The position numbers and the translations under genes were made by a program. Below the pieces are notes generated by a model. The model was given only the letters and a program-made list of their open reading frames with translations. It was not told where the DNA came from and searched no databases. Positions 10,159 to 49,596 of a DNA stretch of 64,000 bases are shown here, one piece after another. The stretch is from Lentzea alba (lineage in GTDB: Bacteria; Actinomycetota; Actinomycetes; Mycobacteriales; Pseudonocardiaceae): the NCBI RefSeq assembly GCF_011067745.1, contig NZ_JAAMPJ010000009.1, forward strand, positions 248,001 through 312,000. The letters run 5' to 3'. The number at the start of each line of letters is the position of its first letter. Position 1 is the stretch's first letter.

Positions 10159-11391
10159 TCAGCGCCGCAGGAGCCGCCAGTAGCGCCCCCACGGCACCAT
10201 CGCGACCCCACCCGCGATCAGCAGGCCGAGCCGCACCTTCACCGTGCCCGGCAGCCGCGGCCAGAGCCGTCTCGCCCGCACCGCGGTGGCGGCCGTGGCG
10301 GCCACCGTCGCCGCCGCCGTCCCCTGCAGGGCCAGCCAGGGCAGGGTCCGGCCACCTAACGTCGGTCCCAGCGCGGGCTCTTCCGAAGCGGTGACGCGGT
10401 ACAGGTACCCGAGCCAGCCCCCGACGGTGACCGAGCCGAGCACGGCGGCCCAGCGGCCGTGCCGCCCCAGACCGCCGGGGAACGCGGCGAGGAACAACAC
10501 CACGGCGGCGCACTGGACGCCGGTCGACTCCCACCACGCCAGCGGCTCGATCGCCCTGCTGCGCACGGCCTGCCGCGGTGGCGGAGCGTTCACGCCGGAC
10601 CGCGCGGTCGCCGGCAGGCCGGTGATCCACGACGTCACGAGCTCGACGTAACCAGCCGCGAGGGTCGACGAGCCCCGTGCGCGCACCCCGTGATCCGCCC
10701 CCGGGATCACCTGGAGGGTCAGCAGACCGTTGTCCGCCAACGCCTCGCGGAAGATCAGCAGGCTCTCCGCCGGCGGCACGACCCGGTCGTGCTCGCCCCA
10801 GATCGCCAGCACCGGCAGGCGCAACGCCCGGAGCACCGGCAGGCCGTCGTAGTCCGCCTCAGGAAACACGCCGGCCGCGCGAAGCTGCCGGATCCCCACG
10901 TCCGCCAGCGCGTCCACCATCGAGCCTCGCACCCCGTTGCGGCGCAGGTAGGACTCCAGCGCCCACGCCTGCTGGCGGACCGGTGGCAGCCCGCTGGCCC
11001 CTACCAGCACCAGGAACGCGATCTCGTCCGAACGGGACGCGGCAAGTGGCGCCACCCAGCCACCTTCGGAGAACCCCCAGAGCCCGACCCGCGCCGGGTC
11101 GGTCTCCGGTTGCGCGGCGAGCAGCCGGACCGCGGCGAGCGCGTCCCCGGCGAGCAGGCCGTAGTCGCGGCGGGTGGCGCTGTACCCCTCGGTGCGCTTG
11201 TCGTAGGTCAGCACGACGATGCCCGCACGGGCGAAGGCCTCAGCGTGTGCGGCGAGCGAAGACCGGCGGCCCGGCCCCGAACCGTGCACCAGCACGACAC
11301 CGGGTCTGCCGGTGCCGCGGGCCGGTAAGTGCAGCGTGCCGTGCAGGGTCGATCCCGCGTTCGCGAAGGACACCTCCCTGGTGAGGATCAC
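10159..11391 (-). CDS. Alpha/beta hydrolase with C-terminal membrane segments; contains TTA codons
   Basis: 410 residues from GTG 11391, overlapping the dehydratase stop. The N-terminal ~270 residues are an alpha/beta hydrolase: oxyanion region LVHGSGPGRRSS, nucleophile elbow GFSEGG, acid region IWGEHDRVVPP and catalytic His in GADHGV. The last ~120 residues hold three hydrophobic segments (CAAVVLFLAAF; WAAVLGSVTVGGWLGYLYRV; a final LLIAGGVAMV), so it is probably membrane-anchored. Two in-frame TTA leucine codons (11328-11326 and 10359-10357) are rare in such genomes and suggest bldA-tRNA dependence. As the last gene of the biosynthetic operon it may edit or release acyl intermediates, or process the product; the substrate is unknown. 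Confidence 0.8.
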   Translation of the reverse strand: MILTREVSFANAGSTLHGTLHLPARGTGRPGVVLVHGSGPGRRSSLAAHAEAFARAGIVVLTYDKRTEGYSATRRDYGLLAGDALAAVRLLAAQPETDPARVGLWGFSEGGWVAPLAASRSDEIAFLVLVGASGLPPVRQQAWALESYLRRNGVRGSMVDALADVGIRQLRAAGVFPEADYDGLPVLRALRLPVLAIWGEHDRVVPPAESLLIFREALADNGLLTLQVIPGADHGVRARGSSTLAAGYVELVTSWITGLPATARSGVNAPPPRQAVRSRAIEPLAWWESTGVQCAAVVLFLAAFPGGLGRHGRWAAVLGSVTVGGWLGYLYRVTASEEPALGPTLGGRTLPWLALQGTAAATVAATAATAVRARRLWPRLPGTVKVRLGLLIAGGVAMVPWGRYWRLLRR

Positions 11392-11858
11392 CTGGCGCCC
11401 TCCGCCACGGGCAGCGTTCCGGCCGGCCGGAACGCGAGCATGACGCGCTCCAGCGACAACACGACCTCTCCCCCGACCGTGGTCTCGCCCGAGACGATCA
11501 CGGTGCCGGGCACCACCCGCACGATCCGGACGTCGTGGTGCAGCACGTCACCCGGAACCACCCGGCGGCCGAACGTCAGCCCCGACAGCTTTCCCGCGAG
11601 CATGACGTGACCGGCGGGCACGTCGACCTCGCCGGTGAGGCAGAGCACCACCCCGGCGGCCTGCATCCACGACTCGACGAGCAACGTCCCGGGATAGCCG
11701 TGGTCATCGTCGTCACCGATGTCGTCGTACCAGGGTTCGTTGCAGGTGATTGCCTTGACCACCACCAAAGCGCCATCGTCCGTCCACATGGCACGGTCGA
11801 CCAGCAGCATCGGATACCTGTGCGGCAGCAACCTCTTGATCTCCGCGACACCGATCAC
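11388..11858 (-). CDS. FabZ-like 3-hydroxyacyl-ACP dehydratase subunit
   Basis: 156 residues from GTG 11858, overlapping the previous stop by 4 bp. It is a hot-dog-fold dehydratase with the FabZ-type catalytic His in LLPHRYPMLLVDRA near residue 13 and the acidic partner in GTLLVESWMQAAG. Length and motif order match FabZ. It sits beside a second, more divergent dehydratase. Two adjacent dehydratase genes are typical of highly reducing type II polyketide clusters, where they form a heterodimer dehydrating each beta-hydroxyacyl-ACP to leave double bonds. That pairing is inferred from context. Confidence 0.88.
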   Translation of the reverse strand: MIGVAEIKRLLPHRYPMLLVDRAMWTDDGALVVVKAITCNEPWYDDIGDDDDHGYPGTLLVESWMQAAGVVLCLTGEVDVPAGHVMLAGKLSGLTFGRRVVPGDVLHHDVRIVRVVPGTVIVSGETTVGGEVVLSLERVMLAFRPAGTLPVAEGAR

Positions 11859-12229
11859 GCCGTGCTCCTCTCCCCGATCCCGAGCCGGACCACCGCGGCC
11901 GTCCCCCGGACCGTGTCGACCTGAGCCGCACAACCGCGCCCATCCCACCGCAGCGAGACGGTGATCACGTCGTGCGGGAACACCGGCGCGTGGAACCTGA
12001 TCGAGTCCACGACGCCGAGCGTGGCCGGACTGTCCGGCACGACCTGGCGGACCGCCAGGTGGACGCATTCGACCAGGCAGACGCCCGGAAAGATGGGCAG
12101 GTCCGGGTAGTGCCCGGCGAAGACCGGCTCGAGCGGTGAGATCTCGAACTCCGCCTCCGCCGTCCAGACACCGTCCACTTCGGACGGCGGCCGGGTGAGC
12201 CGGGGCCGCACGCGCACCGGGCCCGTCAC
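11855..12229 (-). CDS. Hot-dog-fold dehydratase, second subunit
   Basis: 124 residues from GTG 12229, with 4-bp overlaps at both ends. It has the FabA/FabZ-type segment FAGHYPDLPIFPGVCLVE (His in GHYPD, Glu in VCLVE) and a short hot-dog domain. It is shorter than FabZ (about 150 residues) and lacks the HRYPFLLVD motif of its neighbour. It probably works with the adjacent dehydratase on ACP-bound beta-hydroxy intermediates. A thioesterase-like role is possible within this superfamily but less likely given the neighbours. Confidence 0.8.
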   Translation of the reverse strand: MTGPVRVRPRLTRPPSEVDGVWTAEAEFEISPLEPVFAGHYPDLPIFPGVCLVECVHLAVRQVVPDSPATLGVVDSIRFHAPVFPHDVITVSLRWDGRGCAAQVDTVRGTAAVVRLGIGERSTA

Positions 12230-13398
12230 CCGGCGACCCGTTCGACGTGGACCGACCGGTCCGACAAGGCGTTCGCCACCTTCATCCGCGTGTCCGCCGG
12301 ATCGATCACCTCGTCCACCGCGTCGGCCTCCACCCCGGACGACGACCAGGCGTACACCGTCGTCACGCCGGCAGAGCAGGCCTTCGCCACGAAGTACGCG
12401 CCCTTGTAGCACTCACGGGTGATCAGCACCGTCCGCGGGACGGACGTGGCCGCGAACGCGTCGAGAAGTTCCGCGCCGGTGCGCAAAACGTCTCCCCACC
12501 GTTCGTCGATCCCTGGCAGGACAGCGGGTACGTCCACGATGACGAGCAACGGCACGGAGAACGCGTCGCACATCCGCACGAACTGCGAGGCCTTCCGCGC
12601 CGCAGCCGCGTCGAGCATGCCCCAGCGGCGGCTCGGGTTGTTCGCCACGACGCCGATCGGGCGGCCACCCAGCCTGCCGAGACCGACCACGATGCTCGGC
12701 GCCGTCCCGCTCTTGAACTCCTCGAACACGCCGTCGTCCAGCAGAGCGCACACCAGCGGTTTGACGTCGTAAGGCACTTCCTCACTGGCCGGCAACAACT
12801 TCCGCAGGTCCTGGTGAGATCCGGCGCCGTCGCCATCGCCCGGTGACGTCAGCAACCGCAGAACGCGTGCGGTGGCAGCACATGCGTCCCGTTCGTTCGC
12901 CACGTCCAGGTGCGCCCCGCGCCCACCGACGGAGATCGCCACGTCGGCGAGTTCCACGCAGGCGGCCATTCCGCCGGCCGACGGTCCGGCGACGGTCAGG
13001 ATCTGGGGAATCCGGCCGGACACGCTGATCATCGCCGCGTACACGTGCACCAGTCCGCCGGACAGCTCGTCCGTGGTGACGGCCGCGGGGTCGATCCGCC
13101 ACAGGCCGATCACCGGAAGGTCCTCCCGGTCGGCGAGGTCGATCGCGGCGACGACGTGCCGGGATCGCACCTTCTCGAACGTGGCGTTCTCCCGGTCGAG
13201 TTCGACGACGTACAGGACAACGGGAACGCCGCCCAGCACGCCTCGCGCGGTGTACACACCCGCGCGGTCGTCGTCGACGAGCACAACGGCACTGCCGGGA
13301 TCAAGCCAGCTGGTGGCGTCGCCGCGAGGCGTCCCGCCAAAAGTGAGCTCACCGACGACGTGGCGAGCCACGCCACTGGCGCGAAGTGTTGACCTCAT
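12226..13398 (-). CDS. Acyl-CoA carboxylase carboxyltransferase-domain protein
   Basis: 390 residues from ATG 13398, overlapping the SbnB-like stop (ATGA). The sequence follows the crotonase-fold carboxyltransferase family: an N-terminal half with AGPSAGGMAACVELADVAISVGGRGAHL (oxyanion-type glycines) and a C-terminal half with LGGRPIGVVANNPSRRWGMLDAAAARKASQFVRMCDAFSVPLLVIVDVP, the usual second CT repeat. It is shorter than standard beta subunits (~520 residues). No biotin carboxylase or biotin carrier gene is in the window. It may supply malonyl-CoA together with a housekeeping alpha subunit, or handle another acyl-CoA. Its place between diaminopropionate and polyketide genes favours extender supply. 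Confidence 0.8.
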   Translation of the reverse strand: MRSTLRASGVARHVVGELTFGGTPRGDATSWLDPGSAVVLVDDDRAGVYTARGVLGGVPVVLYVVELDRENATFEKVRSRHVVAAIDLADREDLPVIGLWRIDPAAVTTDELSGGLVHVYAAMISVSGRIPQILTVAGPSAGGMAACVELADVAISVGGRGAHLDVANERDACAATARVLRLLTSPGDGDGAGSHQDLRKLLPASEEVPYDVKPLVCALLDDGVFEEFKSGTAPSIVVGLGRLGGRPIGVVANNPSRRWGMLDAAAARKASQFVRMCDAFSVPLLVIVDVPAVLPGIDERWGDVLRTGAELLDAFAATSVPRTVLITRECYKGAYFVAKACSAGVTTVYAWSSSGVEADAVDEVIDPADTRMKVANALSDRSVHVERVAG

Positions 13399-14429
13399 GA
13401 CCGTCCTCCGTATCGGTCGAGCTCGTCGAAGAAGCCGGGCACCGTGCGCAGTTCGCCCCCGGCGTCGAGCTGCTCGTGGACGTGCCTGGCCAGCGCCAGG
13501 TCCAGCACCCCGAGGCCGAACGGGGAGAACACCACGGGCCTGTCGGCCGGCAGGACCGCGTCGCCGGTCAGCAGTTCGGGCAGCGTCGCGTGCACGAAGT
13601 CGCGATGGCCCGCCTGCTGCTCGGCCAGGTGCGGTGAGGTGTTCGCCCGCAGGCAGTGATCGACGTCGTCCACCACGTTGATCGACGACAGGATGATCTC
13701 GGGGGCGAGATCGCGCAGCGACAGGTGCAGCACCAAAGGGTTGTGCCGCAACCACGACGGGTCGTGCACGTGCGGCGTCGAGGCCACCGTCGCGAACACC
13801 ACCACGTCGCTCGCGCGGACCAGCTCGCCCAGATCGGTGTGGACGCGGGCCTGGCCACCGGACCGTGCGACGTACGAGGAGAACCCGTCGGCGTGCGCCG
13901 GCGCCGTGTCGTACACGCCGATCTCGTCCAGGTCCCAGCCCGCGGCCTGGAGATACGTGTGCACGTACCTGGCGATGAGACCGGTACCGACGAACCCGAC
14001 TCGGGGCGCGTCCGGTCCCGCGCGCAGCAGCACTCCCGCCGCCACCGCGGCGGAGGCGGCTGTGCGAGCGGCGCTGATGACCGACGTCTCCAGGCACGCG
14101 AACGGATAGCCGTTGACCGGGTCGTTCAGCACGATCACGCCGGACGCCCTCGGCAGGCCGGCCGCCACGTTGCCGGGAAAGCTGGAGATCCACTTGATTC
14201 CGTCCACAGTGGAGTCACCGCCCAGCGAGGCCGGCAGCGCGATGATGCGGTCGGCGGGCCGGTCCGGGAACCTGAGGAAGTACGACGGCGGGTTGACCGT
14301 GTGCCCGGCGCCGTGCAGCCGGTAGGTGTCCGCCACGATGCGCATCACCTGTTGTTCCTGCCCGTGCAGTACCTTGCTCACCTGTTCGCCGGTGATGACG
14401 GCGAAGGACGGCGCCGCGGACTCGGTCAT
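13395..14429 (-). CDS. sbnB: SbnB-like 2,3-diaminopropionate biosynthesis dehydrogenase
   Basis: 344 residues from ATG 14429, overlapping the neighbouring stop. It belongs to the ornithine cyclodeaminase/mu-crystallin family and fits SbnB: NPPSYFLRFPDRPADRIIALPA near the start, GIKWISSFPGN (conserved Lys), SAARTAASAAVA, and a Rossmann GFVGTGLIARYVHTYL. Known SbnB enzymes oxidatively cleave N-(1-amino-1-carboxy-2-ethyl)-glutamate to L-2,3-diaminopropionate plus 2-oxoglutarate. The partner SbnA-like gene is in the same operon at 18782-19729, but unusually five polyketide genes separate the two. The expected user of the product is the last NRPS module. Confidence 0.9.
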   Translation of the reverse strand: MTESAAPSFAVITGEQVSKVLHGQEQQVMRIVADTYRLHGAGHTVNPPSYFLRFPDRPADRIIALPASLGGDSTVDGIKWISSFPGNVAAGLPRASGVIVLNDPVNGYPFACLETSVISAARTAASAAVAAGVLLRAGPDAPRVGFVGTGLIARYVHTYLQAAGWDLDEIGVYDTAPAHADGFSSYVARSGGQARVHTDLGELVRASDVVVFATVASTPHVHDPSWLRHNPLVLHLSLRDLAPEIILSSINVVDDVDHCLRANTSPHLAEQQAGHRDFVHATLPELLTGDAVLPADRPVVFSPFGLGVLDLALARHVHEQLDAGGELRTVPGFFDELDRYGGRS

Positions 14430-15490
14430 GCTGTCTCCTCCGGGATGCGGAAAAGCCCACACCCGACGTGACCATCGGGGTCGGCGGAGGTCACGAGGGC
14501 GATGGAGCCGGACGCGCCACCGCGGGCGATCGCCATCGCCAGCTGGAAGGCCGCCGAGGCCCCGTCCGTGTCACCGATCAGGCTCGCGGGTTCGCTCACC
14601 CGCCGGTCGGCACCGAAAACGTCCGCGACCGCGAGGAGTTCCGTCCGGGCGGAGCCGCGCGACACCACGACGGACGACACGTCGGCCACCGACGTACCGG
14701 CGGCGGTGAGCGCACGGCGGATCCGGGTGGCGAGCACCTCGGCGGCCGCGTCCGGGTTCGGGGCGACGCCGAGCTCCAGCGCGAGCGGTTCCGCCAGCGG
14801 CACGCGTCCGTGCTCGGCGGCCGCCTCGGCCGACTCGACGAGGAAGACGCAGCACCCCTCGCCCAGCGGGTCCGTCGCTCCGGCACCGTGCCCGTGCCAG
14901 GTGAGCCACGAACGCTGTGGTGTCAGGTCCTCGACCGCGGCGGCCAGCACGACCGGTGCCCGGCCCTGCCGATGCAGCCGCCGTGCGTAGGCGAGCACGG
15001 ACAGGCCCGTCATCCGGCCCGTCGTCACCGTGGTGTTCGGGCCGCGCAGGCCGAACCGGATCGCGCACTGCGCCGCCGAGTTGTTCATGACACTGCTCGG
15101 GAACGCCTTCGTGTCCACTTGGAACGGTTGCGAGCTGGTCATCGACTGGCGGGTCAGCATCATCGCCCGGTCCGTCCCGATGAGGTCGCCCCCGAGCACC
15201 ACGGCCTTGGCGATCGCGGGGTGTTCGGCGAGATCGTGGCGCCGCAACAGCAACCCGGCGGTCCCGACCGCGAGACCGGCCGCGCGGCCCGGCGCGGTGA
15301 GGTTCTTGGAGTCACCGATGATCGCTCCGAGGTCGAACTCCTCGACCACCCCCGCCGCGGTGTACGGCAACCCGCCGGACGGATCCACAGTGGACAAAGC
15401 CGTCCGACCGGCGAGCACACCGCTGGTGAAGGCGTCGGCACCGAGCCCGAACGGGGAGATCACCGACATCGCCGTGATGACCGGGTTCAT
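14426..15490 (-). CDS. Ketosynthase-like protein without active-site Cys (chain-length-factor-like)
   Basis: 354 residues from ATG 15490 with 4-bp overlaps. It has the thiolase fold of type II ketosynthases, including SSVMNNSAAQCAIRFGLRGPNTTVTTGRMTG. Where an active KS has the nucleophilic Cys, the sequence reads TTGRMTG, with Arg in the aligned place, and the two catalytic His motifs are absent. This is expected for a KS-beta/chain-length factor rather than a condensing enzyme. It is the second such protein in the operon (the other is 16224-17273) and may pair with either of the two active KSs. Confidence 0.85.
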   Translation of the reverse strand: MNPVITAMSVISPFGLGADAFTSGVLAGRTALSTVDPSGGLPYTAAGVVEEFDLGAIIGDSKNLTAPGRAAGLAVGTAGLLLRRHDLAEHPAIAKAVVLGGDLIGTDRAMMLTRQSMTSSQPFQVDTKAFPSSVMNNSAAQCAIRFGLRGPNTTVTTGRMTGLSVLAYARRLHRQGRAPVVLAAAVEDLTPQRSWLTWHGHGAGATDPLGEGCCVFLVESAEAAAEHGRVPLAEPLALELGVAPNPDAAAEVLATRIRRALTAAGTSVADVSSVVVSRGSARTELLAVADVFGADRRVSEPASLIGDTDGASAAFQLAMAIARGGASGSIALVTSADPDGHVGCGLFRIPEETA

Positions 15491-16224
15491 CCGCTGATGC
15501 CACCGTCGATCTCGAACACCGCGCCGGTGACGTAGGAAGCCCGGCCCGAGCTGAGGTAGGCGACCAGGTCGGCGACCTCCTCGCCGGTTCCCGCGCGGCG
15601 CAACGCGATCCGCTCGACCATGCGCGCGCGGACCTGGTCGGACAGACCGGCCGTCATGTCGGTCGCGATGAGACCGGGCGCGACGACGTTCGCCCGCACG
15701 CCGTACCTGCCGACCTCCTTGGCCAGCGCCTTGGTCATCCCGATGATGCCCGCCTTGGCCGCCGAGTAGTTGGCCTGGCCGGGGTTGCCGTGCACACCGG
15801 ACACCGACGACAACGTGACGATGCTGCCGCACTTGCGCTTCATCATCTTGAACGTCGCCGCCCGGCAGACGTGGAACGTGCCGTCCAGGTTCGTGCGCAG
15901 CACGTCGTCCCACCGCTCGTCGGACATCGTGGCGAACCCGCCGTCCGCGGTGACACCGGCCGACGTGACGACCGCGTGGATCGGGCCGAAATCCCGTTCC
16001 ACCTCGGCGACCCACGCCGTCACCGCGGCCGCGTCGGTCACGTCGACCTGGGTCGCGGACACCCTCGCCCCGTCCAGTTCCTTCACCAGCAGCCGCGCAG
16101 CCTCGGCGTCGGACCGGTAGGAGAACGCCACGTCGAACCCGTCGGCCACCAGCCGCGCGACGCACGCCCTGCCGATGCCGCGCGAACCTCCGCTCACCAA
16201 CGCGACCCGCGTGCCTTCCGCCAT
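15487..16224 (-). CDS. FabG-type 3-ketoacyl-ACP reductase
   Basis: 245 residues from ATG 16224, one base overlapping the preceding stop (TGATG). It is a classical SDR: glycine-rich VSGGSRGIGRA near residue 10, NxAG-equivalent TSAGVT, catalytic Ser in SSVSGV, and YSAAK as the YxxxK pair. Length and the C-terminal TGAVFEIDGGISG match FabG. Lying between two Cys-less KS genes, it is the ketoreductase of the discrete polyketide system and reduces the beta-keto group after each condensation on the ACP. Confidence 0.92.
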   Translation of the reverse strand: MAEGTRVALVSGGSRGIGRACVARLVADGFDVAFSYRSDAEAARLLVKELDGARVSATQVDVTDAAAVTAWVAEVERDFGPIHAVVTSAGVTADGGFATMSDERWDDVLRTNLDGTFHVCRAATFKMMKRKCGSIVTLSSVSGVHGNPGQANYSAAKAGIIGMTKALAKEVGRYGVRANVVAPGLIATDMTAGLSDQVRARMVERIALRRAGTGEEVADLVAYLSSGRASYVTGAVFEIDGGISG

Positions 16225-17273
16225 CACGCACCTCCCAAACGCAGCAACGCGCCACTCACGGCGCCGTTCGGATCCGTTGCCATCACGAGCACGTGCCGTC
16301 CCGCCGCCTCCGGCCACCTGGTCGCGATCCCCAGTGCGGTGGCGACGGCGAAAGCGGCCGACGCGGCACCGGTGTCCCCGATGCCGTCCGCAGCGGGGAT
16401 CCTGGTCAGCGCGTCCGGTCCGACGAGCCCGGCGACGGCCGCGCGTTCCCGCAGCGAGCCGCCCGCGTCGAGCACCGCCCAGACGTCACCGGGAGCGACT
16501 CCGGCGCGGTCCAGCAGGTCCTGGGTGCACGCCACCACGGCGGCGGGCAGATCGCAGCCGAGCGCGACCCGTCCGCTCACCGCGAGCACGTGCGCCAGCG
16601 GCTCCCGCGCTCCGGGCGGTTCCAGGCGGAACAGCACGCCGCCCTCGCCGAGCCGTTCCAGCCTGCGGCTGCAGGCGTGGTGGGTCAGCCAGGCCCTGGC
16701 CGGCGTGTACTCCTCGACCGCACCGGCGATCACCCGACCGGCGCGGCCCGCGGCGAGCAGCCGGCCCGCGTAGTCCAGCGCGTGCAGTCCCGCGGCGCGG
16801 CCACCGGCGATCGTGGTGTTCGGGCCGGTGATGCCGAAGCGGATCGCACACTGGGCGGCCGCACAGTTCATCGTGCCGCTGGCCAGCGTTTTCGGGTCGA
16901 GCAGATGCGGCCGGCGGCCCTTCAACGAGGCGCGCATGTGGTCCATCTCGGTCTGCACGCTGCCCAGCGCCGTGCCCAGCACCAGCCCGGCGCGTTCACC
17001 GGTGTCCAGGTCGTGGTCCACCAGGTCGCTCAGCGTCGCGAGCGCGAGCTGGCTCGCGCGGTCGAGGTGCCGGACCCCCTTGCCGTCGAGGATCGCCGCC
17101 GGGTCGAGACCGGGCACCGTGCACGCCCGCGCGTCGGGCAGCGCGGACCCGTCGCCGCCGACCGGCCTGGCCGTGTCGCCGCCACTCAACAATCCGTCCA
17201 CATAGGACTCACTGCCGAAGCCGTACGGTGACACCACCGACCAGCCGGTGATCACCGTCGCCGTGTCGTTCAT
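16224..17273 (-). CDS. Ketosynthase-like chain-length factor (active-site Cys replaced)
   Basis: 349 residues from ATG 17273, overlapping the KS stop (ATGA). It carries type II KS features (GTMNCAAAQCAIRFGITGPNTTIAGGRAAG). The segment that should hold the catalytic Cys reads IAGGRAAG, with Arg in its place, as in the paralogue at 14426-15490. Directly following an active KS and overlapping it, it is the likely KS-beta/chain-length factor that forms the heterodimer with 17270-18505 and sets chain length. Confidence 0.88.
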   Translation of the reverse strand: MNDTATVITGWSVVSPYGFGSESYVDGLLSGGDTARPVGGDGSALPDARACTVPGLDPAAILDGKGVRHLDRASQLALATLSDLVDHDLDTGERAGLVLGTALGSVQTEMDHMRASLKGRRPHLLDPKTLASGTMNCAAAQCAIRFGITGPNTTIAGGRAAGLHALDYAGRLLAAGRAGRVIAGAVEEYTPARAWLTHHACSRRLERLGEGGVLFRLEPPGAREPLAHVLAVSGRVALGCDLPAAVVACTQDLLDRAGVAPGDVWAVLDAGGSLRERAAVAGLVGPDALTRIPAADGIGDTGAASAAFAVATALGIATRWPEAAGRHVLVMATDPNGAVSGALLRLGGA

Positions 17274-18780: not shown

Positions 18781-18781
18781 C

Positions 18782-19729
18782 TCATGTCCAATCCGTTGCG
18801 TAGTTGGTGTGCAACCAGTTCTCGTCGTAGACGGAACCGAGGTAGCGCTCCCCCAGATCAGGTGCGATCAACACCGCGGTCGGGTGTTCACGCCGGTCGT
18901 GCCCGGCCAGCCAGCGCAGTGCACCGGCGACGACCGTGCCGGTGGAACCACCGAAGAGGAAGCCGTGCGCGGCGAGCCGGTGGCAGGCCCGGATCGCGTC
19001 CGGCTCGGCCACGTGCACGACGTCGTCCACAAAGGACGGATCGAGGATCTCCGGACGCCGGCTGGTGCCGAGGCCCGGGATCAACCGGCGTGCGGGTTCC
19101 TGGCCGAACGTCACCGATCCCACCGCGTCGACCGCGACCACGGTGACCGGCAGGCCCTCGTCGCGGAAGAACCGGGCGCAGCCCATCAGGGTCCCGGTGG
19201 TCCCCGCTCCGACGAACAACAGGCCCAGATCGGGGAACTGCTTGAGGATCTGCGGCGCGGTGGTCGTGTAGTGCGCCCTCCAGTTGCCCTCGTTCGCGTA
19301 CTGGTTCAGCCACACGTACGAGTCGTCGCCGGCACACAGCTCCCGCACCCGTTCCAGCCTGGCGCCGAGCAGGCCACCCTCCGCGTCCGGGCGGGAGACC
19401 ACCTCCACCCGCGCCCCCAACGCCCGCATCATGCGCACGGCGGGTTCGGTGCACCTGGTGTCGGTGACGCACACGAACCGGTAGCCGCGATGGGCGGCGA
19501 TCATGCTCAGGGCCACGCCGAGGTTGCCCGACGACGACTCCACGAGCGTGTTTCCCGGCCGGAGCAGCCCCGTGGCCTCGGCGGCCTCGACCATGCCGGC
19601 CGCGGCCTTGAGCTTGATCGAACCCGCGAGGTTGAGCCCCTCGCACTTGAGGTGGAGGTGGTGCCCCACAACGCCGTGCAGGTCGACGTACAGATCATCG
19701 ACCGTGAAGGCGTCGGGGGCGGAGATCAC
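18782..19729 (-). CDS. sbnA: SbnA-like PLP-dependent synthase for 2,3-diaminopropionate
   Basis: 315 residues from GTG 19729, overlapping the DAHP-synthase stop (GTGA). It belongs to the cysteine synthase fold: PLP Lys in LAGSIKLKAA, ESSSGNLGVAL for substrate binding, VGAGTTGTLMGCARF as the phosphate-binding glycine loop, and GGSTGTVVAG near the end. With an SbnB-like gene in the operon, the best fit is SbnA, which joins O-phospho-L-serine and L-glutamate. A plain cysteine synthase is less likely given that partner. Length is close to the usual ~325. Confidence 0.88.
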   Translation of the reverse strand: MISAPDAFTVDDLYVDLHGVVGHHLHLKCEGLNLAGSIKLKAAAGMVEAAEATGLLRPGNTLVESSSGNLGVALSMIAAHRGYRFVCVTDTRCTEPAVRMMRALGARVEVVSRPDAEGGLLGARLERVRELCAGDDSYVWLNQYANEGNWRAHYTTTAPQILKQFPDLGLLFVGAGTTGTLMGCARFFRDEGLPVTVVAVDAVGSVTFGQEPARRLIPGLGTSRRPEILDPSFVDDVVHVAEPDAIRACHRLAAHGFLFGGSTGTVVAGALRWLAGHDRREHPTAVLIAPDLGERYLGSVYDENWLHTNYATDWT

Positions 19730-20592: not shown

Positions 20593-20660
20593 CACCAGCT
20601 CCTTGACATGTGTCGACGTAGAGCGATCTGTGTGCGGCCGGTCTCGCCCGGCCCTCCGCG
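20593..20660. other. Short gap between exporter and DAHP synthase genes
   Basis: This 68-bp gap is the longest in the large operon. It contains a GGCCGG...CCGGCC inverted repeat around 20636-20653 and the AAGGAG site of the DAHP synthase gene. It could be a weak processing or termination point, or an internal promoter. Confidence 0.25.
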
Positions 20661-40949: not shown

Positions 40950-41758
40950 GCCGCCGGGTCGCGGTCATCACCGGGGCGTCGCGGGGCATCGGCCGGGAGC
41001 TCGCGCTGCAGCTGGCGGGCTCCGGGGTCGACCTGGTGATCAACTACAAGAAGAACGAGGAACTGGCCGAGAAGACCGCGGCCGAGGTGGAGGCGCTCGG
41101 CGCCCGTGCCGTGGTGGTGCGGGCCGACGTCGAGACGGAGGAGGGCACGGACTCGCTGTTCGACGCGACGCACGCGGCGTTCGGCAGGCTCGACTACTTC
41201 GTGTCAAACGCCGCGGCCAGCGCGTTCAAGAACATCATGGATCTGAAGCCGCACCACCTCGACCGGTCGTACGCGATGAACCTGCGATCGTTCGTGCTGG
41301 GCGCTCAACACGCCGTGCGGCTGATGGACAACGGCGGCCGGATCGTCGCGTTGTCCAGCTACGGCAGCATTCGCGCCTACCCGACCTATGCCGCGCTCGG
41401 CGCGATGAAGGCCGCCATCGAGGCGTGGGTGCGGTACATGGCGGTCGAGTTCGCGCCGTACGGCATCAACGTCAACGCGGTGAACGGCGGGCTGATCCAG
41501 TCGGACTCGCTCGACTACTTCTACGGCGTCCCCGGCATGCCGGACATCGGCACCGTGCTCGACCGCGTGCCCAAGGGACGCCCCGGCACGCTGCCGGAGG
41601 TGGCGGCGACCGTCGCGTTCCTGCTGTCGCCGCAGGCCGAGTACATCACCGGCCAGACCGTCGTCGTCGACGGCGGGCTGAGCGTGGTCGCACCGCCGTT
41701 CTTCGCCGACGCGACAGCACCGCTGCGCCTGCCACCGCGCCCCGCGCGAACGGAGTGA
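40946..41758 (+). CDS. chcA: ChcA-type 1-cyclohexenylcarbonyl-CoA reductase (SDR enoyl reductase)
   Basis: 270 residues from ATG 40946, overlapping the dehydrogenase stop. Rossmann motif ITGASRGIGRE is at residue 9. The active site reads SSYGSIRAYPTYAALGAMKAA, so the Tyr and Lys are spaced as Y-x6-K. That is the enoyl-reductase (FabI/FabL) spacing, not the YxxxK of ketoreductases. ChcA from the ansatrienin producer reduces the ring double bonds to give cyclohexanecarboxyl-CoA using NADPH. Context inside the complete CHC set makes this assignment strong. It was not checked by alignment. Confidence 0.9.
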   Translation: MSRRVAVITGASRGIGRELALQLAGSGVDLVINYKKNEELAEKTAAEVEALGARAVVVRADVETEEGTDSLFDATHAAFGRLDYFVSNAAASAFKNIMDLKPHHLDRSYAMNLRSFVLGAQHAVRLMDNGGRIVALSSYGSIRAYPTYAALGAMKAAIEAWVRYMAVEFAPYGINVNAVNGGLIQSDSLDYFYGVPGMPDIGTVLDRVPKGRPGTLPEVAATVAFLLSPQAEYITGQTVVVDGGLSVVAPPFFADATAPLRLPPRPARTE

Positions 41759-41762: not shown

Positions 41763-43778
41763 TTGCTGCGGCGAGTGTTCCAGCCGGGCATGATCGGGCG
41801 GATGCGGCTGCCCAACCGCATCGTGATGGGCTCGATGCACCTCAACCTCGAAACACGTGACGACGGTGGCGCGGCCGTGGCGGAGTTCTACGCGGAGCGC
41901 GCGCGTGGCGGGGTCGGGCTCATCATCACCGGCGGTTGCGCGGTGAACCGGCAGGGCTCGGGGGGCCGGGGGTACGTCGTGCTGAGCGATCCCGCTCAGC
42001 ACGACGCCCTCGCCCGGTGGGCCACCGCCGTGCACGCGGAAGGCGGCCGGATCGCCCTTCAGCTGTTCCACGCCGGCCGGCTCACCTCCAGCCGGTACAC
42101 GGGCCTGCCGCCGCTCGGTCCGTCCACAGTCGCCAGTCGGATGTTCCCGGACGAGCCGCCGGTCGCGATGACGACCGGGCAGATCGAGGACACCATCGCC
42201 GACTTCGCCCGTGCCGCGGCGCTGGCGGGCGAACTGGGCTTCGACGCGGTCGAGGTGATGGGGTCGGAGGGGTACCTCGTCAACCAGTTCGGGTCGCCGC
42301 TGACGAACACCCGCACCGACGCGTGGGGCGGCGACGCGCGCCGGCGGAACCGGTTCGCACTGGCCGTCGTGGCGGCGATCAGGGACCGCGTGGCCGGACT
42401 CCCGGTGCTGTTCCGGATGTCCGGCGACGACCTGATGCCCGGTTCGTCCACAGTGGACGAGCAGAGGGCGTTCGCGGTCGAGCTCGCATTGGCCGGCGTG
42501 CACGCCGTCAACGTGGGCGTCGGCTGGCACGAGTCACGGGTCCCGACCGTGCAGGGGATGGTGCCGCCCGGCACGTGGAGCCACTACGCGGCCGGCGTGA
42601 AACTGGCCCTCGCGGCCGAACGCCTCGCCGTGCCGGTGATCACGGCCAACAGGTACACCCGCCTCGACCAGGCCGAGCGGGCGCTGGCCGAGGGGCAGGC
42701 CGACTTCGTGTCGATGGCCCGCCCGTTGCTGGCCGATCCCGCCATCGTGGCGAAGGCCCGGACGAACGAGCCGGTCAACACCTGCATCGCCTGCAACGAG
42801 GCGTGCATCGACAGGTCGCTCGGCGACGAACCGGTGTCCTGCGTGGTGAACCCCCGCGCGGGCCGGGAACTCGTCTTCCCCCGCCTCACCGTGCGCCGCG
42901 CCCGCCGGTACGCGGTCATCGGCGGCGGCCCGGCGGGCATGGAGGCCGCGCGCGCCCTGGCGTCGCTCGGCAACAGCGTCTCGCTCTTCGAGGCCTCCAG
43001 CGAACTCGGCGGCCAGTTCCGCCTTGCCCGGCGCGTGCCGGGCAAGGCGGACTTCGGCGCGACGATCGGCTACTTCACCGACGAACTCACCCGGCTAGGC
43101 GTAGACCTGCGCCTGGACACCCCGATCACCACGGCCAACCTCGCCCTGATCGAGCAGACCGACGGCGTGGTGCTGGCGACCGGCGTGACACCCCGCGAAC
43201 TCGACCTGCCGGGAGCCGACCTGCCGCACGTCGTGCGCTACCCGCGCGCGTTCCGCGAACCGGAGTCGCTCGGCGAGCGAGTGGTGATCATCGGCGGCGG
43301 TGGCATCGCGGTGGACCTGGCGCACCTGCTAGGCCACGTGCCGAGCCCGCTCGACGCGCGGACGCGGTTCCTCGTCGACCACGGCCTGACCGAGGGACCA
43401 GCTCCAGCGCCCCCATCACGCTCGCTGACGATCCTGCGCCGCCAGGGCCGCATCGGGACAGGCATGGGCCGCAGCACCCGCTGGGCGGCCGTAGACGCGC
43501 TGCGCCGCCAGGGCACGGAACTGCTCAGCGGCGTCCGCTGCGAGGCCATCACCCCCGACGGCGTGTGCGTCACCGACGAAACCGGAACCCGCCGACTGAT
43601 CCCGGCCGACTCGGTGGTCGTGGCGATCGGCCAGGAACCCCGCGCCACCCTGCTCCCCTTGCTGGCCAATACCGGCCTCCCCCTCCAGTTGGTCGGCGGC
43701 TCCGCCAGCGCCACCGGCCTCAACGCCACCCGCGCCTTCGAAGACGGCCTACGCGCCGCCCACACCCTGGGCCGCTGA
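41763..43778 (+). CDS. plmM: 2,4-dienoyl-CoA reductase-like flavoprotein (PlmM-type)
   Basis: 671 residues from TTG 41763, 4 bp after the ChcA stop. The N-terminal ~360 residues are an old-yellow-enzyme barrel (FQPGMIGRMRLPNRIVMG, LFHAGR, FVSMARPLLADP). An iron-sulfur site follows (CIACNEACIDRSLGDEPVSC, spacing C-x2-C-x3-C-x11-C). The C-terminal half binds FAD and NAD(P)H (IGGGPAGMEAARAL; VIIGGGGIAVDLAHLL). This is the FadH/2,4-dienoyl-CoA reductase architecture. It completes the plmJK-plmL-chcA-plmM set and would reduce a conjugated diene in the ring. The operon ends here, before the palindrome array. Confidence 0.9.
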   Translation: MLRRVFQPGMIGRMRLPNRIVMGSMHLNLETRDDGGAAVAEFYAERARGGVGLIITGGCAVNRQGSGGRGYVVLSDPAQHDALARWATAVHAEGGRIALQLFHAGRLTSSRYTGLPPLGPSTVASRMFPDEPPVAMTTGQIEDTIADFARAAALAGELGFDAVEVMGSEGYLVNQFGSPLTNTRTDAWGGDARRRNRFALAVVAAIRDRVAGLPVLFRMSGDDLMPGSSTVDEQRAFAVELALAGVHAVNVGVGWHESRVPTVQGMVPPGTWSHYAAGVKLALAAERLAVPVITANRYTRLDQAERALAEGQADFVSMARPLLADPAIVAKARTNEPVNTCIACNEACIDRSLGDEPVSCVVNPRAGRELVFPRLTVRRARRYAVIGGGPAGMEAARALASLGNSVSLFEASSELGGQFRLARRVPGKADFGATIGYFTDELTRLGVDLRLDTPITTANLALIEQTDGVVLATGVTPRELDLPGADLPHVVRYPRAFREPESLGERVVIIGGGGIAVDLAHLLGHVPSPLDARTRFLVDHGLTEGPAPAPPSRSLTILRRQGRIGTGMGRSTRWAAVDALRRQGTELLSGVRCEAITPDGVCVTDETGTRRLIPADSVVVAIGQEPRATLLPLLANTGLPLQLVGGSASATGLNATRAFEDGLRAAHTLGR

Positions 43779-44077: not shown

Positions 44078-44089
44078 GGTCAGCGGTGG

Positions 44090-45286
44090 TTAGGGGGTGT
44101 AGCGGCCCAGGACTACGGCGGCGTTCGCGCCGCCGAAGCCGAGAGCGTTCACCAGCACGACGTCCGGCCGGCCGGCCCGTGAGGTGTTGGGCACGCAGTC
44201 GATCGGACACTCCGGGTCGAGCACGCGGTGGTTGATCGTCGGCGGCAGAAATCCTTCCTGCACCGCGAGAACAGCGGCGGTGCAGGCGTGCGCCGCCGCG
44301 GCCCCCATGGTGTGGCCGATCATGGACTTGATCGCGGCGACGGGCGGGACGGCACCCTGCCCGAAGACCTCCGCGAGCGCCGCGCACTCCATGGGGTCGT
44401 TGGCTTTCGTGCCGGTGCCGTGGGCCAGCACGAGACCGACCTCGTGCGGCGCGACACCCGCGTCGGCCAGCGCGCCGCGCAGGCACTCGGTCACCATCTC
44501 CTGCAGCGGCCGGGTCGGGTGGTACGCGTCGCAGGTCAGGCTGTAGCCGAGCACCTCGGCGTGAATGGTGGCGCCACGGGCCAGCGCGAAGTCCAGCGCC
44601 TCCAACACGAGCACCGCCGCGCCCTCGCCGAACACCACGCCTTTCCGGTCGGCGTCGAACGGCCGGCACGCGTCCGGTGCGAGCGCTCCCAGGCGGTACA
44701 TGTTCGCGAAGACCTTGCGGTTGGGCGTGTCCCCGCCGCCGCACAGCGCGAAGTCGACCTCGCCGGAACGAATCGCGTCCAAGCCGTAGCCCACGGCGTA
44801 GTTCCCGGCCGCGCAGACGTTCGGCAAAGTGATCGCCTCGACGTCGGACAGGCCCAGGTCGGCCGCCACCGCCAGCGGCATCCGGCTCATCCGGAACCTC
44901 TTGGCCAGCAACGGATCGAGGTGCGGCAACCCCTGCGCCAACTCCATCTCGGTCAACACGTCGACGTCGCGCGCGTCGCCGTCGGTGGTGCCGATCGAGA
45001 TGAGCCCCGGCACGTCACGCAGCTCCCCCAACGAAACCGCGGCGTCCTCCACCGCCATCCGGGCCGCGGCCACCGTCATCCGAGTGGCCAGGCCTTGTTC
45101 CGAGTCGCCGTCGGGGAAATCGGGCACCTCGCACATCCGGTCGTGCGCGAACCCGGTCGTGTCGAAGAACGAGATCGGGCCCGCTCCGCTGCGGCCTTCC
45201 CGCAGCCCAGCGCCGAACCCGCTTCTGCCGTTGCCGATGCTCGACACGACACCGAGCCCGGTGACGACAGTCCTGCGTGCGGTCAT
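44090..45286 (-). CDS. Second type II beta-ketoacyl synthase
   Basis: 398 residues from ATG 45286 with GAGGAG upstream. The catalytic triad is intact: Cys in LPNVCAAGNYA, His in LAHGTGTKAND and His in SMIGHTMGAA. It is clearly related to the KS at 17270-18505 (shared FDTTGF, GTTDG/GTTNG, PDACRPFDA, FLPPTINH/FIPPTINH). It lies outside the main polyketide block, 12 bp after the LAL regulator at 45299 and in the same direction. It may act on a different chain-length stage, or start the chain from the cyclohexyl unit, pairing with one of the two Cys-less KS proteins. Confidence 0.92.
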   Translation of the reverse strand: MTARRTVVTGLGVVSSIGNGRSGFGAGLREGRSGAGPISFFDTTGFAHDRMCEVPDFPDGDSEQGLATRMTVAAARMAVEDAAVSLGELRDVPGLISIGTTDGDARDVDVLTEMELAQGLPHLDPLLAKRFRMSRMPLAVAADLGLSDVEAITLPNVCAAGNYAVGYGLDAIRSGEVDFALCGGGDTPNRKVFANMYRLGALAPDACRPFDADRKGVVFGEGAAVLVLEALDFALARGATIHAEVLGYSLTCDAYHPTRPLQEMVTECLRGALADAGVAPHEVGLVLAHGTGTKANDPMECAALAEVFGQGAVPPVAAIKSMIGHTMGAAAAHACTAAVLAVQEGFLPPTINHRVLDPECPIDCVPNTSRAGRPDVVLVNALGFGGANAAVVLGRYTP

Positions 45287-45298
45287 TCCTGCTCCTCG

Positions 45299-47986: not shown

Positions 47987-48031
47987 CGCGACCCCTTCCC
48001 TGGCGAGCCGTCACCCGTGCGCGGAAGTGAA

Positions 48032-48107: not shown

Positions 48108-48220
48108 AGTGATCTTCTCGCAAACCGGGGGAAACATGACTCAATTGGTAAAACTGTGGTACGGGACAGCAGGGGTTCGGTACCTTCGAATGACCACCCC
48201 CAGTGTCTGAACACACCGAA

Positions 48221-48255
48221 AGCCGGGGCCGGACGTGGATCGTCCGACCCCGGCT
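48221..48255 (-). terminator. Strong hairpin downstream of the Asn-rich ORF
   Basis: AGCCGGGGCCGGACG (48221-48235) pairs with CGTCCGACCCCGGCT (48241-48255) with one mismatch and a 5-nt loop. On the minus strand it begins 28 nt after the Asn-rich ORF stop and is followed by TTT. A competing 6-bp hairpin (48247-48252 with 48260-48265) uses part of the same arm, so two exclusive structures are possible. Confidence 0.7.
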
Positions 48256-48283
48256 CAAACGGGGTTCACAACCAGGCGGTCGT

Positions 48284-48382
48284 TCAGTTCGCCGCGTTGT
48301 TGTTGTTCGCGTTGTTGTTGTTCAGGTTGTTGTTGTTCAGGTTGTTGTTCGGGTTGTTCGCGTTGCGGTTGTTGTTGTTCAT
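48284..48382 (-). CDS. Asn-rich mini-protein or leader peptide (32 residues, 23 Asn)
   Basis: ATG 48382 is preceded by GAGGTGG at 7 nt. The frame encodes Met followed by blocks of 2-4 Asn separated by single Arg, Ala, Pro or Leu, ending at TGA 48284-48286. All Asn codons are AAC. On the DNA this is a GTT-rich tract that is striking in a high-GC genome. It is divergent from the second oxygenase gene across an operator pair. Downstream on the same strand come a hairpin and then the LAL regulator. It could be an Asn-sensing leader, a small secreted or structural peptide, or a low-complexity accident. No signal peptide is seen. Confidence 0.5.
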   Translation of the reverse strand: MNNNNRNANNPNNNLNNNNLNNNNANNNNAAN

Positions 48383-48464
48383 TTCAGCCACCTCGTGCTC
48401 GAAGGGAACCCAGCGGACCGTCGACCGGGCCGCGCTAAGAGCCTCCGGTCCACGCCGAGCACCG

Positions 48465-48546
48465 CACATCACCCGAGTTGGCACGGCGAACGGAGTGACA
48501 ACGCCCAGGATTTCGCGGCACCGCTGACAGGTTGGGCGATGTGACC
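48465..48546. promoter_or_regulatory. Divergent promoter with inverted operator pair related to that at 35.6 kb
   Basis: CACATCACCC (48465-48474) and GGGCGATGTGACC (48534-48546) match the core of the 35615/35697 motif in the same inward-facing arrangement, separated by 59 bp. The right copy ends 57 bp before the oxygenase ATG at 48604, almost the same distance as in the first promoter (54 bp). The left copy lies 82 bp from the Asn-rich ORF start. Confidence 0.65.
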
Positions 48547-48603
48547 GGTTGGCGGGCCGCGCGAAGCTGACGCCGTCCCGACCCTCGAGAGGGGAAGTCA
48601 GCC

Positions 48604-49596
48604 ATGACGTCTCAGATGGACGCGCCCGTGAACACGGACGGCACGATCTCGTTGGAGCTCACGGAAGACGAGCGGCACGCCGTCCGGCGGCTCACGACCA
48701 CCCTCACCGCGAACCCGCTGGCGCTGATCGACGGCACCGAGTGGGTGCAACAGGCGTTGGACCTGTCGTGCGAGCTTCCCCTGCGACTGCGTGAGGCGCT
48801 GCGCCGCTTCCGCAGGCATCCCGGCGCCGAGGCGGTGCTGCTGGTGCGCGGTCTGCCCGTCGACGAGAACGACCTGCCGCCCACTCCGAACGTGCCGGGT
48901 TCGGTCGAGAAGCACCCGACCACGCCGGCCGCGGCACTGGCGCTCACCAGCCTGCAGCTGGGCGACGTCACGGCGTTCCGCCAGGAGAAGGGCGGCGCTC
49001 TGGTGCAGAACGTGGTCCCGGTGCCGGGAAAGGAGGACTTCCAGGGCAACGCGGGCTCGACCACGCTGACCATGCACGTGGAGAACGCCTTCCACACACA
49101 CCGGCCGGACTACGTCGCGCTGCTGTGCCTGCGCAACGACCACGACAACGTGGCGGGGCTGCGCACCGCGAGCGTGCGCACCGCACTTTCCTTGCTGTCA
49201 CCCGAAATGCGGGCCGTCCTCGGCGAACCCCGGTTCATCACGGACGCGCCGCCCTCCTTCGGGGACAGCGTGCCGTCGGCGAAACCGTGCGCCCTGCTGA
49301 ACGGCGCTCCGGAGGACCCTGACATCGTGGTGGACTTCCACGCCACGCAGCCTCAGGACGAAGTCGCCGCGGCCGCGTTCCGCGCGCTCGGCGACGCGCT
49401 GGACCAGGTGCGGCGCACGTTCATCCTGCGCACGGGCGACCTGGCGATCGTCGACAACCGGCTCGCGCTGCACGGCCGCACCGCCTTCAAACCCCGGTAC
49501 GACGGCAGGGACCGCTGGCTGCAGCGCACCTACATCCACCTGGACGCCCGGCGCACCAGGCCGTACCGGGAAGCGAACGGCAACGTGCTGTCCTGA
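48604..49596 (+). CDS. Second Fe(II)/2-oxoglutarate oxygenase (AsnO/VioC-type)
   Basis: 330 residues from ATG 48604 with GAGGGGAAG upstream. It is paralogous to 35770-36777, with the same blocks: FRQEKGGALVQNVVP, MHVENAFHTHRPDYVALLCLRNDHDNVAGLR (metal His-x-Glu) and LALHGRTAFKPRYDGRDRWLQR (distal His and Arg). It probably hydroxylates a free or carrier-bound amino acid at C3. Two such genes suggest two hydroxylated residues or two different substrates. Its stop is 4 bp from the convergent PAS-LuxR stop. Confidence 0.9.
   Translation: MTSQMDAPVNTDGTISLELTEDERHAVRRLTTTLTANPLALIDGTEWVQQALDLSCELPLRLREALRRFRRHPGAEAVLLVRGLPVDENDLPPTPNVPGSVEKHPTTPAAALALTSLQLGDVTAFRQEKGGALVQNVVPVPGKEDFQGNAGSTTLTMHVENAFHTHRPDYVALLCLRNDHDNVAGLRTASVRTALSLLSPEMRAVLGEPRFITDAPPSFGDSVPSAKPCALLNGAPEDPDIVVDFHATQPQDEVAAAAFRALGDALDQVRRTFILRTGDLAIVDNRLALHGRTAFKPRYDGRDRWLQRTYIHLDARRTRPYREANGNVLS

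What the first reader, a model, noticed from the sequence alone, without database searches (positions are those of the whole stretch)
10159..49596. Predicted hybrid pathway: cyclohexyl-primed highly reducing type II polyketide joined to a four-module NRPS
Seen: discrete ACP, two active KSs, two Cys-less KSs, FabG-type KR and two dehydratases in one operon with a free C domain, MbtH, two NRPSs and a TE, divergent from a complete plmJK-plmL-chcA-plmM-like set. Known: that set makes cyclohexanecarboxyl-CoA in the ansatrienin and phoslactomycin pathways, where it primes modular PKSs. Inferred: here the CHC unit primes a type II system and the unsaturated omega-cyclohexyl chain is passed by the free C domain to a peptide containing diaminopropionate and a beta-hydroxylated residue. 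I do not recall a described product of this type.
Basis: partly seen in the sequence, partly recalled or inferred. Interest (0 to 1): 0.88.

Follow-up and report, generated by a model that had tools for sequence, protein, structure and literature searches.

The report
Cyclohexyl-primed polyene lipopeptide gene cluster
A soil actinomycete carries a gene cluster that most likely builds an unsaturated fatty chain ending in a cyclohexane ring and joins it to a four-residue peptide; relatives keep the same peptide machinery beside genes for an aromatic starter instead, which suggests how such compounds swap their tails.

Summary
The gene set is real: all reported parts are present, and 28 compared genes show purifying selection against a Lentzea aerocolonigenes orthologue. 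The cluster runs further than reported (to about 58,587, with LuxR-type regulators). The main inference is supported. [quoted passage not shown] a sister cluster keeps an EPSP-synthase-like gene in the same slot; three clusters of another genus keep the same NRPS, free C domain and both KS/CLF pairs but carry an aromatic lyase and a ligase instead (starter swap). The union with a peptide was not found in what I could search. Added here: KS2/CLF2 goes with ring-starter genes (9 of 9 clusters that have it, 0 of 16 that lack it; three genera only); two AsnO-like oxygenases and an Asn-like A2 code point to hydroxy-Asn; C4 resembles dehydrating C domains, with deviations; an Asn-rich mini-ORF plus hairpin occurs in all six orthologous clusters and nowhere else in 2.86 Mb scanned. 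Product, chain length and residue 1 are unknown. New variant of a known kind.

The parts
10159..11391 (-). alpha/beta hydrolase-type protein; role unknown
   Evidence: conserved in G001 (78%), no match in the G019 or g11 clusters
11388..11858 (-). FabZ-like dehydratase DH1
11855..12229 (-). second, weak FabZ-like hotdog protein DH2
12226..13284 (-). carboxyltransferase-like protein; role unknown
   Evidence: in the three Lentzea clusters only
13395..14429 (-). SbnB, diaminopropionate biosynthesis
   Evidence: TIGR03944 414.5 bits, over cut-off
14426..15490 (-). CLF2, Cys-less KS
   Evidence: relatives
15487..16227 (-). FabG-type ketoreductase
16224..17273 (-). CLF1, Cys-less KS
   Evidence: best solved relative 6kxd_B, 224.7 bits
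17270..18505 (-). KS1, active-site Cys present
   Evidence: best solved relative 6kxd_A, 489.6 bits
18502..18780 (-). discrete ACP
   Evidence: DSL motif
18782..19735 (-). SbnA, diaminopropionate biosynthesis
   Evidence: TIGR03945 382.1 bits, over cut-off
19726..20595 (-). DAHP synthase, probable shikimate supply
   Evidence: in the three Lentzea clusters, no match in g11
20661..21905 (-). MFS transporter
21913..29070 (-). NRPS2, C-A-PCP-C-A-PCP-TE (modules 3 and 4)
29067..33923 (-). NRPS1, A-PCP-C-A-PCP (modules 1 and 2)
33920..34135 (-). MbtH-like protein
   Evidence: PF03621 65.2 bits
34135..35544 (-). free condensation domain, motif HHIATDF
35770..36777 (+). OX1, AsnO-like oxygenase
   Evidence: 2og5 AsnO 307.5 bits, next 165.6
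36808..39762 (+). JK, EPSP-synthase-like plus CoA-ligase fusion
39759..40949 (+). plmL-like acyl-CoA dehydrogenase
40946..41758 (+). chcA-like SDR reductase
41763..43778 (+). plmM-like FMN oxidoreductase
44090..45286 (-). KS2, active-site Cys present
   Evidence: 6kxd_A 428 bits
45299..47902 (-). LAL1, LuxR-type regulator
48218..48382 (-). Asn-rich mini-ORF (48382 to 48284) and GC-rich hairpin after it; candidate regulatory leader
48604..49596 (+). OX2, AsnO-like oxygenase
   Evidence: 2og5 AsnO 290.7 bits, next 152.1
49601..50305 (-). PAS-LuxR regulator
   Evidence: 82% in G001
50467..58587 (-). LAL2, LAL3 and LAL4 regulators (50467-53187, 53171-55795, 55891-58587)
   Evidence: conserved in G001, G019, G161, G134 and G165

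Best explanation
A biosynthetic cluster for an omega-cyclohexyl, unsaturated acyl tetrapeptide. Inferred from families: DAHP synthase raises shikimate supply; JK, L, ChcA and M convert shikimate to cyclohexanecarboxyl-CoA; two KS/CLF pairs (KS1/CLF1 and KS2/CLF2, the second probably the one that takes the ring starter) with ACP, KR and hotdog dehydratases extend it to a polyenoyl-ACP (no enoyl reductase of the chain was found in the cluster); the free C domain passes it to residue 1 on NRPS1, which has no N-terminal C domain of its own. The NRPS adds a probable 3-hydroxy-Asn (A2 code, AsnO-like oxygenases), a Ser/Thr-type residue that C4 may dehydrate, and Dap (SbnA/SbnB, Dab/Dap-type A4 code); the TE releases the product. 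Shown: gene content, synteny, relatives, active-site residues. Not shown: any enzyme activity, any product.
For: All parts confirmed. The CHC cassette is enclosed by cluster genes and conserved in G001 with dN/dS 0.14-0.27. G019's orthologous cluster has an intact EPSPS-like gene in the same slot and the full cassette elsewhere. Three g11 clusters keep NRPS1, NRPS2, free C domain, ACP, KR and both KS/CLF pairs but carry lyase plus ligase and no CHC genes. Ring-starter genes: 9 of 9 clusters with a close CLF2, 0 of 16 without (for the window itself). A2 to A4 codes agree in six clusters. The genome has its own separate EPSPS.
Against: No product or assay. G019's cluster lacks ligase, plmL, chcA and plmM, so supply in trans there is a guess. 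No dehydratase-like match was found in the 60-kb g11 stretches. The TE motif is GWSSA here instead of GWSSG in G019 and g11, and the free C domain has HHIATDF in the Lentzea clusters. The own genome has four MIO-type lyase matches, none in the window, so an aromatic starter in trans is not excluded. Residue 1 is unassigned; code meanings are recalled.
Confidence: 0.72

Rival explanations
1. Two clusters side by side: the CHC cassette serves another product (omega-cyclohexyl fatty acids or a separate polyketide) and only happens to lie by the NRPS cluster.
For: CHC cassettes occur in many settings: 80 loci examined, most of them without a matching NRPS within 10 kb.
Against: It is enclosed by OX1 on one side and KS2, LAL1 and OX2 on the other, conserved in G001, with an EPSPS-like gene in the same slot in G019 and aromatic starter genes within the related g11 clusters.
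Confidence: 0.1
2. CHC-CoA is used without extension: CHC or a short chain is attached directly to the peptide, and the type II PKS makes something else or only a short enoyl chain.
For: Chain length cannot be read from sequence; the fusion contains its own CoA ligase domain.
Against: ACP, KR and both KS/CLF pairs are conserved with the NRPS in six clusters of two genera, and KS2/CLF2 goes with ring starters.
Confidence: 0.12
3. A known product already characterised under another name; the cluster is a new member of that family.
For: MIBiG and antiSMASH could not be run and most subscription papers are not held. L. aerocolonigenes is reported to hold a low-identity match to atratumycin (14-34% given for a group of three agents; passage in PMC9120177); I did not verify that it is this locus.
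Against: Nine full-text searches that bear on the product listed no CHC-primed NRPS product that I recognised; enamidonin-type peptides (Phe-Dpr-Dpr-Gly, PMC11204786) do not fit the A codes.
Confidence: 0.12

Closest known systems
Asukamycin (manumycin type; MIBiG BGC0000187, T2PKS)
   Same: Cyclohexyl-ended unsaturated chain on a type II PKS (passages in PMC11213898, PMC7284804); the window's EPSPS domain groups with loci that carry GriH/NAT-type genes.
   Different: No AHBA (GriH, GriI) genes among the genes annotated here; the chain goes to a four-module NRPS rather than to an aminohydroxybenzoate core.
Ishigamide-type (polyene) type II PKS
   Same: KS1/CLF1 closest to 6kxd_A/6kxd_B among solved structures, with discrete ACP, KR and dehydratase-like genes. 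That 6kxd is the ishigamide Iga11-Iga12 pair is recalled.
   Different: A second KS/CLF pair, a ring-starter cassette and an NRPS.
Skyllamycin, kitacinnamycin and other cinnamoyl-containing peptides
   Same: Type II PKS chain joined to an NRPS peptide (passages in PMC6510318).
   Different: Chain capped by a starter from a CHC cassette; no isomerase-type gene among the annotated cluster genes; four modules.
CHC pathway of phoslactomycin
   Same: Cyclohexanecarboxyl-CoA as starter (passages in PMC7496768, PMC9730843). The same set of JK, L, ChcA and M genes is recalled.
   Different: There it loads a modular type I PKS.
Enamidonin, autucedine and kutzneridine lipopeptides
   Same: Dap-containing acyl tetrapeptides from actinomycetes (PMC11204786, first part read; PMC12843350, passages).
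   Different: Peptide Phe-Dpr-Dpr-Gly and branched acyl-dehydro-beta-alanine; A codes here show one Dab/Dap-type domain, in last place.

Membership tests
Polyene (highly reducing) type II PKS | KS with active-site Cys and Cys-less partner, both closest to the 6kxd pair | tested here: met
Polyene (highly reducing) type II PKS | Discrete ACP, KR and dehydratase | tested here: met
   (second dehydratase weak)
Polyene (highly reducing) type II PKS | Polyene product | not testable with these tools
   no product known
CHC-CoA pathway | EPSPS-like, CoA ligase, acyl-CoA dehydrogenase, chcA-type SDR and FMN reductase together | tested here: met
   the same four genes in G001
CHC-CoA pathway | CHC-CoA formed | not testable with these tools
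   needs labelling or enzymology
Cinnamoyl-containing nonribosomal peptides | Type II PKS and NRPS genes together | tested here: met
Cinnamoyl-containing nonribosomal peptides | Isomerase gene (Sky27 type; PMC6510318, passage) | tested here: inconclusive
   no isomerase family among the Pfam/NCBIfam hits of the cluster genes, but Sky27 itself was not used as a query
Manumycin/asukamycin type | AHBA genes (GriH, GriI) and arylamine N-acyltransferase | tested here: not met
   none among the Pfam hits of the cluster genes; present in G019 C10
AsnO-type asparagine beta-hydroxylases | Closest to AsnO rather than to Arg, Lys or clavaminate enzymes | tested here: met
   nearly twice the next score
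AsnO-type asparagine beta-hydroxylases | Hydroxylation of free L-Asn | not testable with these tools
   needs enzymology
Dehydrating (CmodAA) C domain, for C4 | Closest to known dehydrating C domains | tested here: met
   McyA 193.8 and AmbE 182.5 bits, next 96.0; the other C domain of NRPS2 does not prefer them. That the McyA domain dehydrates is recalled
Dehydrating (CmodAA) C domain, for C4 | DG of HHxxxDG, and His of [K/R]SVLLAAH (PMC11342130, section 8) | tested here: not met
   C4 has ECHPILEGW (EG) and Tyr at the place of that His
Enamidonin type | Phe-Dpr-Dpr-Gly peptide | tested here: not met
   A codes, (code meanings recalled); peptide from PMC11204786

The most novel reading that the evidence does not exclude
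One conserved tetrapeptide NRPS with its free C domain has been paired in nature with two chemically different ring starters, cyclohexanecarboxyl in Lentzea and an aryl acid from a lyase in another genus, each taken up by a dedicated KS2/CLF2 pair; and the cluster is gated by an Asn-rich leader peptide and hairpin that report charged tRNA-Asn, the cluster's own substrate.
Probability: 0.3. Interest if true: 0.75.

Novelty: new variant of a known kind. Interest (0 to 1): 0.6.

Why it matters
If right, it is a natural example of starter-unit exchange (aryl against cyclohexyl) on one intact lipopeptide line, with a candidate pair of subunits (KS2/CLF2) that decides it: a handle for changing lipopeptide tails. 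The Asn-rich leader would be a case of an NRPS cluster sensing its own amino-acid substrate, testable with a simple reporter. A named strain, L. aerocolonigenes NBRC 13195, carries the orthologue.

Tried and rejected
Considered and rejected: (a) an enamidonin/autucedine-type product: peptide and A codes differ. (b) The view that CHC primes only modular PKSs: rejected on asukamycin (passages in PMC11213898 and PMC7284804) and on the EPSPS tree. (c) An arginine/enduracididine hydroxylase or clavaminate synthase as nearest kin of the oxygenases, suggested by NCBIfam scores below cut-off: AsnO scores nearly twice as high. (d) The Asn-rich ORF as a common motif: of 21 matches to ATGAAYAAYAAYAAY in 18 of 390 family genomes, 2 are Asn-rich ORFs of 15 residues or more, both in this cluster family. 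That pattern finds only 2 of the 6 leaders (the other four begin with three Asn), so it is a limited control. (e) A known RNA family at that site: four matches at E up to 5, all far below gathering scores.

Led nowhere: the product in print; a role for the carboxyltransferase-like gene and the hydrolase; an antiterminator partner for the hairpin; naming residue 1. The terminator scan, which needs a T run, does not report the hairpin. The 271-base fold is only mildly better than shuffles (z -2.27, 3 of 200 as good). In one search (mononucleotide shuffles, 75 bases after the stop) z is -2.0 to -6.2 for five leaders and 0.2 for G019, where the 75 bases cut the hairpin that one search finds at -35.9 kcal/mol. 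The Asn codons are AAC in 104 of 105 cases, so codon choice cannot tell selection on the peptide from a DNA repeat.
Full report
Place and boundaries. The window is G000:C34:248001-312000 of a 10.2-Mb genome, in the same genus as Lentzea aerocolonigenes. G001 is taken to be L. aerocolonigenes NBRC 13195 and G019 Lentzea sp. NBRC 105346, because contig lengths and positions agree with NZ_BBOJ01000006.1 and NZ_BSTQ01000010.1. G001 keeps the 29 genes from 10159 to 58587 in the same order and strand; the genes of the window outside that stretch have only short or weak regulator-type matches in the 80 kb of G001 examined. The cluster therefore runs from about 10.2 to 58.6 kb.

Observation. KS1 and KS2 have the active-site Cys and HGTGT; CLF1 and CLF2 lack the Cys. 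KS1 and CLF1 are closest among solved structures to the two subunits of 6kxd (489.6 and 224.7 bits), KS2 also to 6kxd_A (428 bits); that 6kxd is the ishigamide pair is recalled. NRPS1 starts with an A domain, so the free C domain fits as the missing first C domain. SbnA and SbnB exceed their curated cut-offs. The genome has a separate EPSPS at C1:1100801 (387.5 bits), so the fused one is not the only one.

The CHC cassette belongs to the cluster. In G001 its four genes are 86-92% identical with dN/dS 0.14-0.27, within the range of the other cluster genes. In G019 the orthologous cluster (C2:448529-490332) has an intact EPSPS-like gene alone in the same slot, between an AsnO-like gene and KS2; it ends in a clean stop and no ligase remnant was found in the 2,000 bases taken around it (best E 1.1). 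G019's full four-gene cassette lies at C10:121340-128208, beside genes for a 3-dehydroquinate-synthase-II-type protein, a DeoC-type aldolase, an arylamine N-acetyltransferase-type protein and a FAD monooxygenase, as expected of an asukamycin-type cluster (expectation recalled). Whether G019 supplies CHC in trans is inference.

Starter swap. Three genomes of another genus (g11: G161, G134, G165) carry the same NRPS1, NRPS2, MbtH, free C domain, an AsnO-like oxygenase, SbnA, SbnB, ACP, KS1/CLF1, KR, KS2/CLF2 and MFS (49-69% identical) and four LAL regulators (34-47%), but in 60 kb each no CHC cassette, DAHP synthase, DH1, DH2 or carboxyltransferase match. In the same clusters lie an aromatic amino-acid lyase (PF00221, 534.5 bits in G161), an AMP-binding ligase and a carbamoyltransferase. 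The lyase's best solved relatives are tyrosine aminomutase (305 bits), then a histidine lyase (282), AdmH (269) and others, so lyase or aminomutase is open. A2, A3 and A4 codes are the same or nearly so in six clusters (DLPKVAEVG, in G019 DLPKVAEIG; DVWSVAMVH; DVWEVTADD, in the window DVWEMTADD), while A1 differs (DATQLTTVE or DATQMSTVE in Lentzea, DAWQLSTID in g11). The meanings (Asn-like, Ser/Thr-like, Dab/Dap-like) are recalled; the last is backed by SbnA/SbnB. The own genome has four PF00221 matches, none in the window, so an aromatic acid could be available in trans.

KS2/CLF2 marks ring starters. CLF1 relatives are common (107 of 390 family genomes at E up to 1e-30); CLF2 relatives at E up to 1e-60 occur in 10 of 390. 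Nine of these clusters, the window included, have CLF2 at 49% identity or more, and all nine have CHC genes (2), an EPSPS-like gene (1) or lyase plus ligase (6) nearby; the tenth (G010, weakest) showed none in 60 kb. Sixteen related clusters without a close CLF2 (36-43%; G010 and G741 among them) showed none in the 40-60 kb examined; weak 25-35% matches to the ligase or SDR there are generic. Limits: the nine come from three genera; the sixteen were picked as strong CLF1 hits or relatives, not at random; one stretch (G225) holds 3,495 N; one (G019 C10a) lies on the contig that bears G019's CHC cassette, about 86 kb away. Over the phylum, 1 of 396 genomes besides the window had a CLF2 match at 1e-40: G741, which has a related NRPS and no ring-starter genes found.

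Spread of the CHC cassette. A scan of named genomes gave 111 relatives of the fused EPSPS-ligase, of which 80 were returned and examined, with at most 10 kb on each side, so distant KS or NRPS genes would be missed. One of 80 (L009, L. aerocolonigenes) has this NRPS; L055 (Micromonospora rosaria) has another NRPS-like protein (36%) about 8 kb away; L064 (Streptomyces ardesiacus) has a discrete KS (54%), a CLF, ACP and KR close by; GriH-like genes lie in 3 of 80 (L010, L012, L043); L080 has a KS in a 1,656-residue frame. In an EPSPS-domain tree of 82 rows the window groups with L009 (100/99), with G019 C2 (97/74), with L010 (100/99), then with L012, L043, L011, L075 and L021 (99/93). The cassette's nearest kin are thus loci of asukamycin type or with discrete KS genes; L021 showed no KS in its 17.9 kb.

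Peptide. Both oxygenases are closest to AsnO (307.5 and 290.7 bits; next best 165.6 and 152.1). With the A2 code this points to hydroxy-Asn. The C domain of module 4 scores McyA (193.8) and AmbE (182.5) about twice as high as the next solved protein (96.0), while the other C domain of NRPS2 prefers Txo1 (298.9; AmbE 70.4, McyA 62.6). AmbE-C2 is a characterised dehydrating C domain (PMC10880069, passages); that the McyA domain is one is recalled. In C4 the first His of HHxxxDG is Cys, as reported for two side-chain-conjugating CmodAA domains, but DG, called strictly conserved there, is EG, and the His of the [K/R]SVLLAAH motif is Tyr (PMC11342130, section 8). Dehydration of the Ser/Thr-type residue is a fair guess, not a result.

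Asn-rich leader. Between LAL1 and the second oxygenase lies a mini-ORF, 48382 to 48284 (-), 23 Asn of 32, with a GC-rich hairpin after it. All six clusters have one (12 Asn of 19 to 24 of 34), each followed by a hairpin of -28 to -41 kcal/mol starting 2-31 bases after the stop. In g11 it lies just upstream of the free C domain gene, first of the NRPS genes; in G000 and G001 upstream of LAL1, in G019 upstream of a small gene before LAL1. Between G161/G165 and G134 one stem pair changes from C-G to T-A (sequences). In 143 stretches (2,857,077 bases), mini-ORFs of 15-70 residues with at least 45% Asn were found seven times, all in these six clusters (one counted twice through L009 and L131). In the own genome ATGAAYAAYAAYAAY occurs once, here. 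I read it as a candidate leader that senses Asn supply. The results that do not help are given under Tried and rejected.

Known or not. Each pair of ideas is known: a cyclohexyl end on a type II PKS chain (asukamycin), type II PKS with NRPS (skyllamycin, kitacinnamycin, PMC6510318; proposed for pachycephalamides, PMC11446937), Dap in lipopeptides (PMC11204786). The combination was not found in nine searches of the open library that bear on it (the tenth was on C domains); MIBiG itself was not available. Of the papers cited only passages were seen, except the first of three parts of PMC11204786 and section 8 of PMC11342130; Rui 2010 on asukamycin was not held and is recalled.

Noticed in passing
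window 48218-48382 (-): Asn-rich mini-ORF followed by a strong hairpin, with counterparts in all six orthologous clusters; perhaps a leader that senses asparagine supply.
   Followed up: partly
G019:C10:108565-131653 (L138, L139; L010): A Lentzea genome holds what looks like an asukamycin/manumycin-type cluster with a complete CHC cassette and a class-II DAHP synthase.
   Followed up: partly
L019, L020, L022, L023, L029, L031, L051, L079 (Eremiobacterota bins): CHC cassettes next to a discrete KS (33-36% to KS1) and a DAHP-synthase-like gene in an uncultured phylum, a setting I do not recall.
   Followed up: no
L028, L032, L033, L041, L044, L047 (Cellulomonas, Arthrobacter): EPSPS-ligase fusion with plmL- and plmM-like genes but no chcA-like match; perhaps another cyclohexyl product or fatty acid.
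   Followed up: no
window 12226-13284 (-): Short carboxyltransferase-like protein (352 residues), in the three Lentzea clusters but with no match in g11; role unknown.
   Followed up: no
L194:6491-9858 (G071); L203-L206 (G069, G074): Lyase plus ligase with a CLF2-type subunit in a genus with 5-Mb genomes: apparently another ring-primed type II PKS, without this NRPS.
   Followed up: partly
G741:C19:1815000-1846018 (L197, L198): A related NRPS (41-45%) with SbnA/SbnB, carbamoyltransferase and type II PKS genes in another family, without ring-starter genes; a halogenase gene lies close by.
   Followed up: partly
window 10159-11391 (-): Among the window genes checked, TTA codons occur only in this hydrolase gene (two) and in the gene at 61705-62583 (one).
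   Followed up: no
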